Positions 58,674 to 64,000 of a DNA stretch of 64,000 bases are shown here, in pieces. Every line of letters starts with the position of its first letter. The stretch's first letter is position 1. The notes under the pieces are model-generated. The model saw only the letters and a list, made by a program, of their open reading frames with translations. It searched no databases and was not told the DNA's origin. This DNA comes from Kineosporia corallincola (GTDB lineage: Bacteria; Actinomycetota; Actinomycetes; Actinomycetales; Kineosporiaceae): positions 62,001 to 126,000 of the forward strand of contig NZ_JAHBAY010000017.1 in the NCBI RefSeq assembly GCF_018499875.1, in the 5' to 3' direction. Made by a program: the position numbers and the translations under genes.

Positions 58674-59828
58674 TCATGGCGTGGTGCTGAACAGGGTTCC
58701 CGCGATCAGGTCGAGCATGACCTCGCTCGGCCCGGCCGCGAGCGCCGCGGCCCGCGCCTCCCGGTGCGCCCGGGCGATCGAGGAGTCCGCCACGAAGCCG
58801 GCCGAGCCGTGCAGGTGCAGGCAGCGGTCGGCGACCCGGCAGGCCAGTTCGGTGGCGTACAGCTTGGCCGCCGAGCACTCGGCCACCGGCAGGTCGCCGC
58901 GGGCCAGGCGGTGGGCGGCGTCGTGCACCAGCAGGCGGGCGGCGGACAGTTCGGTGTGCATCCCGGCCAGGGCGTGCCGCACGCTCTGGAGGTCACCGGC
59001 CCGGCCGCCGAACAGGGCGCGCCGTTGCACGTGGTCGAGGGTGTCGTGCAGGCAGCGGTCCACGCCGCCGACGGCCAGCGCCGCGGCGATCACGCGCTCT
59101 TGCTGAAAACCCTTCATCAGGTAGTGGAATCCCCGTCCGGCGCGGCCGATCAGGGCGTCGGCGGGCAGCGGGACGCCGTCCAGGCCGAGTTGTGCGGTGC
59201 CGGCGCAGTGCCAGGCGGCCAGGGGCTGCGGGGTGACGGTGAGGCCGGGGGCGTCGAGGTCGGTGACGAAGAGCGAGATGCCGGTCGGGCCACGGGTGGC
59301 CGGGCCGGTGCGGGCGGCGATCACGGCGAAGCCGCCGCACAGTGCGTTGGTCACCATGGTCTTGGTGCCGTGCAGCCGGAACCCGTCGCCGTCCGGCGTG
59401 GCGGTGGTGGCGAGGGCGGTCAGGTCCGATCCGGCGTCCGGTTCGGTGACGGCGAGGGCCGCGACCCGCTCGCCCCGGATCGCCGGGCCCAGGTAGCGGT
59501 GCCGCAGGGCCGGTGCGGCGGCGGTGGCCAGGTAGTGCGTGGCCATCCAGGTGTGCACGCCGACGGCGGCCCGGAAACCGCTGAAACCGGTGCGCCCCAG
59601 CTCTTCGGCGGCCACCACCGAGGAGAGCAGGTCGTGCCCGGTGCCGCCGTCGGCGATCGGGTGGGCCAGGCCGAGCAGGCCCGCCGCGCCGAGTGTCTTC
59701 CAGGCGTGCCCGGGGATCCGGCCCTGTTCCTCCCAGCCGGGCAGGGCGGGCACCACCTGCTCGTCGAGCAGGGTCCGCACGCTGATGCGGAAGGCCTCGT
59801 GGTCGGCGGTGAGCAGGGTGGAGCTCAT
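58674..59828 (-). CDS. Acyl-CoA dehydrogenase-like flavoprotein, catalytic Glu absent
   Basis: A 384-residue protein with the acyl-CoA dehydrogenase fold: GLLGLAHPIADGGTGHD, AVTEPDAGSDL, GTKTMVTNAL and ending LHGSAGFVADSSIARAHREARAAALAAGPSEVML. In ordinary members the final motif reads IYEGTSE; here the Glu position is Ala365. Because the neighbours are carrier-bound amino acid enzymes, the substrate is probably an aminoacyl or chloro-aminoacyl thioester. KtzA of the kutzneride pathway, which makes a cyclopropane from a gamma-chloro-isoleucyl thioester, is the closest known logic. ATGA overlap with the upstream gene shows coupling. Confidence 0.85.
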   Translation of the reverse strand: MSSTLLTADHEAFRISVRTLLDEQVVPALPGWEEQGRIPGHAWKTLGAAGLLGLAHPIADGGTGHDLLSSVVAAEELGRTGFSGFRAAVGVHTWMATHYLATAAAPALRHRYLGPAIRGERVAALAVTEPDAGSDLTALATTATPDGDGFRLHGTKTMVTNALCGGFAVIAARTGPATRGPTGISLFVTDLDAPGLTVTPQPLAAWHCAGTAQLGLDGVPLPADALIGRAGRGFHYLMKGFQQERVIAAALAVGGVDRCLHDTLDHVQRRALFGGRAGDLQSVRHALAGMHTELSAARLLVHDAAHRLARGDLPVAECSAAKLYATELACRVADRCLHLHGSAGFVADSSIARAHREARAAALAAGPSEVMLDLIAGTLFSTTP

Positions 59829-61126
59829 GCCGGGGCCCGGACGGCGGCGGCCAGTTCGGTGAAGGAGTTCGCGGTGAACACGGTGTCGGGTTCCAGGGCG
59901 CCCTCGCCGAGCCGGCCCTCGACCAGGTCGATGAGCCGCACGGCGGTGAGCGAGGTGCCGCCGAGCTCGAAGAACCCGGCGTTCGTGGCGGCCGCACCGG
60001 CCCCGAAGATGCCGTCCCAGATCTCGGCCAGCACAGCGGTCTCCGCGGTGCGGGCGGCAACCGGCCCGGAGCGCAGCCGATCGAGGCCGGGCACCAGGTT
60101 CACCCTGGCCGGCCAGGACCCGCCGAGCCGGGCCCGCAGGTCGGCGGCCAGGGCCCGGGAGGTGGGCCAGGCCGGCGGCACGGCCGGGAAGGGGTGGGCG
60201 GGACGGGCGCCGGGACGGCGGGCGTACACCGTGTACAGCGGGGTGCCGACCAGGCGTGGGTCTCGTTCGTGGGCGACCAGGAATCCCTGGCTGCGCAGCA
60301 GCGCCAGCACCCGGTTCAGCCGGTCGTCCAGGTCGTGCACCTCCAGGGCGACCTGCTGGACGGCCGGCCAGGTGGCGGCGTCCACCCCGGTCAGCACGTC
60401 CCACTCGGCCTTCTCCACGTCGATCTTCAGCAGGTCGATCCGCGGCAGCCCGAACCGGGTGACCAGTTCGGTGACGGTGGTCACCGGCACCGTCCGGGTG
60501 GTGCCCCGCATCCGTTCGCCCACCAGCCGGTCCAGGTCGAGACCGGCGGCCTCGGGGTCGGTGCTGAGATAGGAGTGCAGCACCTCCTGGTCCTCACCGG
60601 CCTCGGCGTAGCGGCCGGACATCACCGTGTTGCCGGGGTAGAAGGTCAGCTCGGCGCTGCCCGGGTGGTCGCCGGCCGCCTCGGTGACCACGGTCAGGTC
60701 CAGGCCGTGCAGGCGCCCGGTGGTGGTGGCGGCCGCCGCGGTCTCGGCCATCGGCTCGACCGCGACGATCCGGGCGCCGGGGGCGCGGGTGCCGGCCAGC
60801 AGGCTGAAAAGGCCGATGTTGGAGCCAATGTCGACCACCACGGCGTCGCGCGGCACCACCAGGCCGTGCCGCAGGTAGGCGTTCTCCTGCCAGACCTCGC
60901 GGTGCAGAAACTCGGTCTCGGTGCGGTTCACCCCGGCCACCAGCAGGTCGGGGGCCGGCTCGTGCAGGCCGACGCCGGGCGGCAGCTCCAGGTCACCGGC
61001 CCGGCGCAGCAGCGGCGCCCGCTCCGGATCGGCGACCACGTGCACGGTGCCGTCGTCCGGGTCGGCCACCGCGGCCTGTTCCACCGCGGGGTGCTCCAGC
61101 ACCCGGCTGATCCGCTCGTCGGTCAC
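59825..61126 (-). CDS. FkbM methyltransferase inside A-domain C-subdomain, plus carrier
   Basis: A 433-residue composite. Residues 1-~40 (RVLEHPAVEQAAVADPDDGTVHVVADP) resemble the start of an adenylation-domain C-terminal subdomain. Residues ~65-300 are an FkbM-type SAM methyltransferase (VVVDIGSNIGLFSLLAG, LLKIDVEKAEWDVL). After it, LAADLRARLGGSWPARVNLV followed by SGPVAART looks like the rest of that subdomain with the A10 lysine lost. The C-terminus is a carrier domain with Ser392 in FFELGGTSL. An A-core is absent, so it cannot adenylate. GTG overlaps the preceding stop. It may accept an aminoacyl group by transfer and methylate it. Confidence 0.8.
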   Translation of the reverse strand: MTDERISRVLEHPAVEQAAVADPDDGTVHVVADPERAPLLRRAGDLELPPGVGLHEPAPDLLVAGVNRTETEFLHREVWQENAYLRHGLVVPRDAVVVDIGSNIGLFSLLAGTRAPGARIVAVEPMAETAAAATTTGRLHGLDLTVVTEAAGDHPGSAELTFYPGNTVMSGRYAEAGEDQEVLHSYLSTDPEAAGLDLDRLVGERMRGTTRTVPVTTVTELVTRFGLPRIDLLKIDVEKAEWDVLTGVDAATWPAVQQVALEVHDLDDRLNRVLALLRSQGFLVAHERDPRLVGTPLYTVYARRPGARPAHPFPAVPPAWPTSRALAADLRARLGGSWPARVNLVPGLDRLRSGPVAARTAETAVLAEIWDGIFGAGAAATNAGFFELGGTSLTAVRLIDLVEGRLGEGALEPDTVFTANSFTELAAAVRAPA

Positions 61127-63203: not shown

Positions 63204-64000
63204 CAGCGATCTGCCTCCGCCAGTGGGGATCGGGAGATACGGGCCCTCTCGACCTCGGCCGCCAGTGAGGCGACGCTGACGCCGTCCACCAGTGCGGTGA
63301 GGTCGAGGTCGGTCTGGAACTCGTCGTTCACCTGCCCGAACATGCGCAGCACGCTGAGCGAGGTACCGCCCAGGTCGAAGAAGTCGTCGTCCTCGCCGAA
63401 GGCGGAGTGCCCCAGCGTCTGCTGCCAGATCCGGATGATGCCGGCCCGCACCTCGCTGTCCGCGAGGTCGTCCGGTGCCGGGGGACCGGTGATCGGGCTG
63501 CGGTCGGCCTTGCCGTTGGACGTCAGGGGAATCGCCTCCACAGGTAGGTATTCGGACGGGCGTAGGTGCCGGGGCAGCCGGGCCGCCGTGTGGGCGATCA
63601 GCCCCGGCACGATCCGCGACCGCCAGGGGTCACCGGCCGCGGCACCCGGTGGCGGGGTGACGTAGGCCGCGAGCCGGACGTCGCCGCCACCGTGTTCGGA
63701 GGTGGTCACCAGGGCGTGCCCCACCTCGGCGTGCTCCTCCAGGACCGCCTCCACCTCCCGGGGCTCGACCCGGAAACCCCGCACCGACAGCTGGTCGTCG
63801 ATGCGGCCGAGGTAGGAGTAGCCGTCGGCCCGCAGCCGCACCCGGTCGCCGCTGCGGTAGAACCGCTGCCCGCCGGCCAGGGTGAGGAAGCGCCGCGCGG
63901 TCAGGTCCGGCCGGTTCAGGTAGCCGCGGGCCACCCCGGGCCCGGCGATGTACAGCTCACCCGGCTCGCCGTCCGGCACCGGTTCACCGTCTTCGTTCAT
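63203..64000 (-). CDS. NRPS adenylation (C-terminal part) and carrier domain
   Basis: The gene enters from beyond base 64000; only the last ~265 residues are visible. Adenylation motifs A7 and A8 are present (RFYRSGDRVRLRADG, YLGRIDDQLSVRGFRVEP) and A10 (SNGKADR, with the catalytic Lys). A carrier domain follows with Ser in FFDLGGTSLS. It ends without a condensation or thioesterase domain, as in the A-T proteins SyrB1 and CmaA that load the amino acid for the halogenase. The specificity pocket lies outside the window, so the amino acid cannot be predicted. Confidence 0.92.
   Translation of the reverse strand: MNEDGEPVPDGEPGELYIAGPGVARGYLNRPDLTARRFLTLAGGQRFYRSGDRVRLRADGYSYLGRIDDQLSVRGFRVEPREVEAVLEEHAEVGHALVTTSEHGGGDVRLAAYVTPPPGAAAGDPWRSRIVPGLIAHTAARLPRHLRPSEYLPVEAIPLTSNGKADRSPITGPPAPDDLADSEVRAGIIRIWQQTLGHSAFGEDDDFFDLGGTSLSVLRMFGQVNDEFQTDLDLTALVDGVSVASLAAEVERARISRSPLAEADR

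What the first reader, a model, noticed from the sequence alone, without database searches (positions are those of the whole stretch)
58674..64000. Halogenase cassette for a chlorinated or cyclopropyl amino acid
Five coupled genes encode A-T, SyrB2-type halogenase (His120-Gln-Ala122), Cys-nucleophile transferase, an MT-carrier protein and an acyl-CoA dehydrogenase homologue. KtzABCD (kutzneride allocoronamate) and CmaA-E (coronamic acid) share halogenase + dehydrogenase or transferase logic. The order and the extra FkbM-carrier protein match neither set that I know, so this may be a new variant making a cyclopropyl or gamma-chloro building block.
Basis: partly seen in the sequence, partly recalled or inferred. 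Interest (0 to 1): 0.87.

Follow-up and report, generated by a model that had tools for sequence, protein, structure and literature searches.

The report
Threonine chlorination and probable cyclopropanation cassette
A compact set of bacterial genes appears to load threonine on a carrier protein, chlorinate it, pass it to a second carrier that probably methylates it, and probably use the chlorine to close a three-membered ring, giving an unusual amino acid that a neighbouring ligase may cap; relatives of the set occur in a range of other bacteria.

Summary
Five overlapping genes (A-T, SyrB2-type halogenase, Cys transferase, FkbM-carrier, acyl-CoA dehydrogenase homologue) lie at 58674-64000, minus strand; the A-T gene runs 1023 bases past the window. 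A same-genus genome has the same set plus a divergent BesA-like ATP-grasp ligase and a type II thioesterase, among different flanking genes. In 15 of the 80 nearest halogenase loci the five genes stand in the same order; 2 more carry a rearranged variant.

The A-domain code DFWSVGMVHK is shared with 22 of 24 Pseudomonas SyrB2-type loci, so the predicted substrate is L-Thr, not Ile. The halogenase is 70% identical to SyrB2 and groups apart from Ile-coded cassettes. The dehydrogenase homologue, however, belongs to one clade with those of five Ile-coded halogenase/A/ACAD cassettes built like ktzA-D. The FkbM-carrier is a core-less interrupted A domain.

Best reading: Thr is chlorinated at C4 on carrier 1, moved to carrier 2, O-methylated and cyclised to a 2-methoxy-1-aminocyclopropanecarboxyl unit, then released and capped. 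Loading, chlorination and transfer are well supported by sequence; methylation site, ring closure and capping are inferred. New variant of a known kind; nine literature searches of an open-access library showed no matching pathway.

The parts
63203..64000 (-). A-T didomain, 3' part (gene continues to C17:127023 = 1023 bases past the window); A code DFWSVGMVHK, predicted L-Thr; carrier 1
   Evidence: Pfam AMP-binding, AMP-binding_C, PP-binding on the whole gene; code by alignment to PheA
62256..63203 (-). SyrB2-type Fe(II)/2OG halogenase, 315 aa, His120-Gln-Ala122, His238
   Evidence: TIGR01762 477.8 bits; 70% to SyrB2; catalytic residues as in SyrB2
61123..62259 (-). SyrC-like alpha/beta hydrolase-fold aminoacyl transferase, 378 aa, nucleophile Cys204, His355
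   Evidence: invariant GLCGG, Asp327, GDH355 in 14 sequences; 38-41% to the genes after the halogenase in Pseudomonas loci
59825..61126 (-). FkbM methyltransferase-carrier protein, 433 aa: carrier 2
   Evidence: PF05050 and PF00550; TIGR01444 90.4 bits, cut-off 37.7; AF2 pLDDT 87.1
60968..61126 (-). N-terminal half of the relic adenylation C-terminal subdomain (residues 1-53 of the FkbM-carrier protein)
   Evidence: hhalign of both flanks against A-domain subdomains, probability 97.2, E 3.8e-11; reversed control probability 0.2
60278..60832 (-). FkbM methyltransferase domain (Pfam stretch, residues 99-283), SAM motif DIGSNIG
   Evidence: D99, G101, N103, E124, KIDVEKAE region and EVHD invariant in 17-18 aligned sequences
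60044..60169 (-). C-terminal half of the relic adenylation subdomain (residues 320-361)
59840..60034 (-). Carrier domain 2 (residues 365-429, phosphopantetheine Ser392)
   Evidence: PF00550; GGxS392L invariant
58674..59828 (-). Acyl-CoA dehydrogenase homologue, 384 aa; proposed ring-closing flavoprotein; base Glu244 at 59097-59099

Best explanation
A carrier-protein-based pathway for a small non-protein amino acid. (1) The A-T protein loads L-Thr on carrier 1. (2) The SyrB2-type halogenase chlorinates C4, giving 4-chlorothreonyl-S-T1. (3) The Cys transferase moves it to carrier 2 on the FkbM protein. (4) FkbM methylates the beta-hydroxyl; this would keep the chlorohydrin from closing to an epoxide and would stabilise the later ring. 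(5) The KtzA-clade flavoprotein takes the alpha proton with Glu244; the carbanion displaces the gamma-chloride, closing 1-amino-2-methoxycyclopropane-1-carboxyl-S-T2, so that chlorine is cryptic. (6) The type II thioesterase releases the amino acid and the BesA-like ATP-grasp enzyme joins it to another amino acid, perhaps Glu, as product or protected form. Steps 1-3 rest on sequence; the substrate of step 4, the ring closure of step 5 and the order 4 before 5, and the partner in step 6 are inferred.
For: Thr code DFWSVGMVHK here and in the same-genus genome; 15 of 15 ordered cassettes and 22 of 24 Pseudomonas loci fit DFW[SN][VI]GMVHK (22 of 24 with exactly DFWSVGMVHK). Halogenase residues H116, A118, H235, R254, N123, T143 of SyrB2 kept. 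Transferase Cys/His conserved. In Streptomyces argillaceus LrgS/H/Y load, chlorinate and transfer Thr (PMC9396626, passages). FkbM-carrier: both flanks of FkbM match the A-domain C-terminal subdomain, with the insert between a8 and a9, the site of the Ser O-methylating domain of KtzH (PMC11355689, passages). ACAD: 25 halogenase-linked ACADs form one clade (SH-aLRT 99) with five Ile-coded Ktz-type ACADs nested inside, own-genome paralogues and LCAD outside; 10 positions identical in 25 of 25 and rare outside; base Glu present. KtzD chlorinates Ile cryptically to set up a cyclopropane (PMC12615548, passages). FkbM and ACAD go together: 17 of 17 FkbM loci with at least 6 kb to the right also have ACAD, against 1 of 61 loci without FkbM. 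Ligase nearest to BesA.
Against: No product is known and nothing was assayed. The ACAD base and fold also suit ordinary alpha,beta-dehydrogenation; that Ktz-type loci here are true ktz genes was not shown. The Ktz-type branch inside the clade has weak support in places (86-90), and the tree has no bootstrap. FkbM enzymes methylate O or N; no solved FkbM relative was found by sequence and fold matches are only general class I methyltransferases with low TM-scores. The ligase scores far below the BesA cut-off (141 against 750 bits) and only 3 of 80 loci have it. Three ordered cassettes (L018, L019, L037) showed no thioesterase in the held flank. L053 has the ACAD without FkbM.
Confidence: 0.5

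Rival explanations
1. Same first three steps, but the ACAD is a true dehydrogenase: it makes an alpha,beta-dehydro (3-methoxy-4-chloro-2-aminocrotonyl) unit that keeps chlorine.
For: ACAD fold with a base Glu at the LCAD-type position; carrier-bound prolyl dehydrogenases are also related (4irn, 5zw0; NF045652, below cut-off).
Against: Clade membership with Ktz-type halogenase-linked ACADs rather than with LCAD, 2pg0 or own-genome dehydrogenases; a gamma-chloride set up by a partner enzyme fits displacement better.
Confidence: 0.2
2. A 4-chlorothreonine (or its O-methyl ether) cassette whose product keeps the chlorine, for a peptide or as a free amino acid; the ACAD acts on something else.
For: Nearest halogenase relatives outside the cassette are Thr-type; 48 of 80 loci have halogenase and transferase without FkbM, ACAD or ligase; SyrB1/B2/C is the known 4-Cl-Thr set (recalled).
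Against: ACAD gene overlaps the FkbM-carrier gene and is kept in 17 of 17 FkbM loci with enough flank.
Confidence: 0.15
3. A KtzA-D type cassette for an Ile-derived cyclopropane (allocoronamate), as the reader first compared.
For: Halogenase plus KtzA-clade ACAD.
Against: Thr-type A code against DAFFLG[VM]TFK in the Ktz-type cassettes; halogenase outside the Ktz-type group (100 support); transferase and FkbM-carrier extra.
Confidence: 0.05
4. The FkbM domain does not O-methylate (it N-methylates, or is only a scaffold) and the ACAD closes 1-amino-2-hydroxycyclopropane-carboxyl or another ring.
For: FkbM members with other specificities are known (recalled); the domain is a relic of a larger A domain.
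Against: SAM-site and other motifs invariant; a free 2-hydroxy donor-acceptor cyclopropane should open (chemical inference).
Confidence: 0.1

Closest known systems
KtzABCD (kutzneride allocoronamate) and the Ktz-type loci L128, L135-L138
   Same: Carrier-bound amino acid, SyrB2-family halogenase, ACAD homologue of the same clade
   Different: Ile-type A code DAFFLG[VM]TFK, stand-alone A next to the ACAD, a free carrier domain (detected in 4 of 5), no transferase or FkbM-carrier found; halogenase only 61-65% identical (L128, L135 measured)
SyrB1/SyrB2/SyrC 4-chlorothreonine system and LrgS/LrgH/LrgY (largimycin)
   Same: A-T with Thr code, halogenase (70% to SyrB2), Cys transferase between carriers
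   Different: Here the acceptor is an FkbM-carrier protein followed by an ACAD; no NRPS or PKS seen among genes called within about 50 kb on the right of the window end or in the window stretch from 53 kb, by gene calls only (not all annotated)
CmaA-E (coronamic acid)
   Same: Halogenase and a transferase (composition recalled)
   Different: Plasmid-borne Pseudomonas syringae halogenase 55% identical (taken as CmaB from memory); none of the seven genes gave a glyoxalase-type (CmaC-like, recalled) domain
KtzH-type interrupted adenylation domains
   Same: Methyltransferase inserted between a8 and a9 of an A domain, before a carrier domain (PMC11355689 passages)
   Different: The AMP-binding core is gone, so the protein cannot load itself; substrate must come from the transferase
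BesA L-propargylglycine--L-glutamate ligase (8yi6, NF042917)
   Same: Only PDB match of the ATP-grasp protein, E 1.4e-34
   Different: 141 bits against a family cut-off of 750; partner halogenase is carrier-dependent, not BesD-like

Membership tests
SyrB2-type carrier-dependent Fe/2OG halogenases | HxG/A in place of HxD/E, second His, 2OG Arg | tested here: met
   H120-Q-A122, H238; HQA in 98 and HQS in 2 of 100 rows, H235 and R254 100 of 100
SyrB2-type carrier-dependent Fe/2OG halogenases | Above the chlorinating-enzyme family cut-off | tested here: met
   TIGR01762 477.8 bits, cut-off 226.3
SyrB2-type carrier-dependent Fe/2OG halogenases | Chlorination of aminoacyl-S-T shown | not testable with these tools
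   needs protein mass spectrometry
KtzA-D allocoronamate cassette | ACAD of the KtzA kind | tested here: met
   one clade with five Ktz-type ACADs, SH-aLRT 99; true KtzA sequence not in hand
KtzA-D allocoronamate cassette | Ile-activating A domain | tested here: not met
   DFWSVGMVHK, not DAFFLG[VM]TFK
KtzA-D allocoronamate cassette | Halogenase of the Ktz-type group | tested here: not met
   five Ktz-type halogenases on their own branch, support 100
SyrB1/B2/C 4-chlorothreonine set | Thr-coded A-T, SyrB2-like halogenase, Cys transferase | tested here: met
SyrB1/B2/C 4-chlorothreonine set | Transfer to an NRPS module | tested here: not met
   the next gene is an FkbM-carrier protein without C or AMP-binding domain
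Cma coronamate set | CmaC-type cyclase | tested here: not met
   no such domain by Pfam in the seven genes; CmaC family recalled
Interrupted adenylation domain (a8-a9 side-chain methylating) | MT inside the A-domain C-terminal subdomain | tested here: met
Interrupted adenylation domain (a8-a9 side-chain methylating) | AMP-binding core present | tested here: not met
   no PF00501 in the protein
BesA ligase | Score above NF042917 cut-off | tested here: not met
   141.1 against 750
BesA ligase | ATP-grasp fold homologous to BesA | tested here: met
   8yi6 E 1.4e-34

The most novel reading that the evidence does not exclude
A widespread, undescribed pathway that turns L-threonine into 1-amino-2-methoxycyclopropane-1-carboxylic acid by cryptic chlorination, on-carrier O-methylation and KtzA-type ring closure, using an adenylation domain that lost its core as a methylating second carrier, and that in some bacteria is handed to a BesA-like ligase instead of an NRPS.
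Probability: 0.35. Interest if true: 0.78.

Novelty: new variant of a known kind. Interest (0 to 1): 0.62.

Why it matters
It would extend cryptic-chlorination cyclopropane chemistry from Ile to the hydroxy amino acid Thr, give an oxygenated analogue of 1-aminocyclopropanecarboxylate (the ethylene precursor) a biosynthetic route, and show a natural case of a methylating carrier protein made by stripping an interrupted adenylation domain of its core. The five genes are short, overlapping and recurrent, so the chemistry can be tested directly with purified proteins, and the question whether the KtzA clade closes rings on other gamma-chloro substrates becomes answerable.

Tried and rejected
Rejected: ordinary phytanoyl-CoA hydroxylase; Ile-type KtzA-D cassette; CmaC-type cyclase. 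The top PDB score of the A-T protein, linear gramicidin synthase, is the sum of two A domains in one chain and was not taken as a specificity hint. A second PhyH-like protein in the genome (30% identity) was not pursued. Residue 146 (SyrB2 numbering), Thr in most relatives, is Cys/Ser/Ala in 17 of 18 cassette halogenases; meaning unknown. A first pass with wrong SyrB2 numbering was redone. The FkbM-carrier model gave only general methyltransferase and one NRPS-module match with TM-scores of 0.21-0.32 over the query; whether the two relic halves pack together in it was not examined. Literature: nine searches of an open-access library showed no paper on this gene set; the terms for a methoxycyclopropane amino acid gave four unrelated papers, 12 of 41 papers were listed and none of the 12 holds 'FkbM'. 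The primary KtzA paper, a cryptic-halogenation review and a paper on interrupted A domains are not held; I saw one as a title in a reference list.

Rows dropped: ACAD tree, the re-fetched L144 and L145 (same DNA as L019 and L033) and L016, and 2 of 10 own-genome paralogues (L155 and L156); halogenase tree, L144, L145, L016, L017 and L035 (L035 is identical to L034, so the 80 loci are 79 different ones). Only the best 80 of 227 relatives were returned. Of 29 listed matches, 19 regions were fetched.
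Full report
What is there. The window is G000:C17:62001-126000 of an 8.2 Mb genome in 53 contigs. Five minus-strand genes fill 58674-64000 with overlapping ends; the A-T gene starts 1023 bases past the window. Divergent to it lies an ATP-grasp gene, and behind that, on the minus strand again, a type II thioesterase (C17:128865-129578).

The unit. In relatives of the genome, 1 of the 57 other genomes searched (G003, same genus) has a full-length halogenase match, 89% identical; one more has a weak 33-residue match. G003 carries the same seven genes at 63-89% identity (A-T 64, halogenase 89, transferase 63, FkbM 66 and carrier 82, ACAD 74, ATP-grasp 65, thioesterase 64), with no match of the other genes called around the window's cassette in the 40 kb compared. 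Its FkbM-carrier protein has a long Pro/Thr-rich linker. That defines the unit and shows it moves as a block.

How widespread. A scan of one genome per species gave 227 relatives of the halogenase, of which the best 80 loci were returned with up to 10 kb on each side (two of them are identical). A SyrC-like transferase was found in 67 of 80, FkbM in 19, ACAD in 18, both in 17. In 15 of these (L018-L029, L033, L037, L040: Actinokineospora, Streptomyces, Actinomadura, an uncultured Pseudonocardiales and two Sorangium) the order A-T, halogenase, transferase, FkbM-carrier, ACAD is the same, often with a thioesterase (12 of 15) and sometimes a BenE-type transporter (5 of 15) between FkbM-carrier and ACAD; L080 and L088 are a variant with the ACAD on the other side. 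The two FkbM loci without ACAD end less than 2 kb after the halogenase; one locus (L053) has ACAD without FkbM. The ATP-grasp gene is in 3 of 80 (L018, L019, L033) besides G000 and G003.

Substrate. The ten-residue code, read by alignment to PheA, is DFWSVGMVHK in G000 and G003. All 15 ordered cassettes and 71 of 78 loci with an A hit fit DFW[SN][VI]GMVHK, and 22 of 24 Pseudomonas loci have exactly DFWSVGMVHK; among them L068, whose halogenase sits next to SyrB2 in the tree. SyrB1 loads Thr (recalled). In Streptomyces argillaceus, LrgS, LrgH and LrgY load, chlorinate and transfer L-Thr (PMC9396626, abstract and passages). So L-Thr is the predicted substrate.

Halogenase. 70% identical to SyrB2, 60% to CytC3; about 61 and 65% to the Ktz-type halogenases L128 and L135. 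Iron ligands, 2OG arginine and the residues listed are as in SyrB2. In a FastTree tree of 100 rows the cassette halogenases need two changes of label: 16 of 18 share one fork (support 91) and the two Sorangium ones branch beside it; the five Ktz-type ones stand apart (support 100).

Second carrier. The protein after the transferase carries FkbM and a T domain. Its remaining parts are not linker: the pieces before and after FkbM from 17 sequences, compared as one profile with 37 A-domain C-terminal subdomains, match with probability 97.2 and E 3.8e-11 (a comparison of one pair), while the reversed columns give probability 0.2. The insert lies between the a8 and a9 regions. There KtzH carries the domain that O-methylates Ser (PMC11355689, passages only). 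The AMP-binding core is missing, so the protein can only be loaded in trans. The AlphaFold2 model is confident (mean pLDDT 87.1, pTM 0.79); fold matches are weak and general.

The ACAD. Five loci of one Pseudonocardiaceae-family search show halogenase, an A domain coded DAFFLG[VM]TFK and an ACAD in a row, with a carrier domain detected in four. I take the code as Ile-like (recalled) and the set as ktzA-D-like; one of the genomes has a second halogenase 25 kb away, as kutzneride has KtzD and KthP (PMC12615548, passages), but identity with ktz was not shown. In a tree of 35 ACADs, 18 from the Thr side (L053 counted among them), 2 from L080/L088 and these 5 form one clade (SH-aLRT 99, no bootstrap), the Ile-type ones nested inside (supports 86-98), while eight paralogues of the own genome, a Geobacillus-type ACAD structure (2pg0) and human-type LCAD lie outside. 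Ten positions (S70, G78, G81, G84, R86, M95, L125, W206, A248, H285) are identical in 25 of 25 and found in at most 2 of 10 outside. Glu244, at the base position of LCAD (recalled), is present in 28 of 35: the 25, both structures and one paralogue. Since KtzA is described as a cyclopropane-forming flavoprotein (title seen in a reference list; details recalled), gamma-chloride displacement is the likeliest reaction, but dehydrogenation is not excluded.

Release. The ATP-grasp protein has one PDB match, L-propargylglycine--L-glutamate ligase (8yi6, E 1.4e-34), and one NCBIfam match, BesA, far below its cut-off. In L037 a neighbouring NRPS protein has two condensation stretches but one A and one carrier domain, and L029 has an NRPS protein upstream, so elsewhere the unit may feed an NRPS. 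For G000 I infer release by the thioesterase and capping by the ligase.

Verdict. Loading of Thr, C4 chlorination and transfer between carriers: about 0.85 together (judgement). O-methylation of the beta-hydroxyl: about 0.65. Ring closure: about 0.6. The whole chain as stated: 0.5 at most, allowing for their dependence. The system works like KtzA-D with a SyrB/C front end, and is a member of neither set.

Noticed in passing
58140-58670, minus strand: Directly behind the ACAD lies the C-terminal part of an ArsO-like flavin monooxygenase without its N-terminal part (matches positions 121-248 of 346 of NF040505 from its first residues on); it looks like a remnant at the edge of the unit.
   Followed up: partly
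L009:15301-17543 (C17:130300-132542), beyond the window: A penicillin-acylase-like gene appears split over two overlapping frames (513 aa part matches Pfam from position 186 on), next to what reads like an ABC exporter ATPase end at C17:132535-134160 (by eye). Possibly decayed genes or sequencing errors.
   Followed up: no
L016, L020, L021, L025, L026 (also L036, L127, L136, L137): A Na+/H+ exchanger family gene (PF00999 in L021) stands beside the cassette in five loci and near other halogenase loci; 17 of 101 searched loci have a match. Export or ion handling partner?
   Followed up: partly
L037:14821-15927: A nitric oxide synthase oxygenase domain gene (PF02898, E 6e-145) follows the cassette in Actinomadura formosensis, near an NRPS protein.
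   Followed up: no
L080, L088: A variant with a carbamoyltransferase-family gene (PF02543/PF16861 in L080; homologous cluster in L088) before the A-T gene and the ACAD on the far side.
   Followed up: no
H6, NZ_CP015269.1:124842-125780: A Mycobacterium intracellulare plasmid carries a chlorinating enzyme 63% identical to this halogenase; context not looked at.
   Followed up: no
H16, NZ_CP007129.1:541916-543223: A Gemmatirosa plasmid encodes a 46% identical relative of the ATP-grasp ligase.
   Followed up: no
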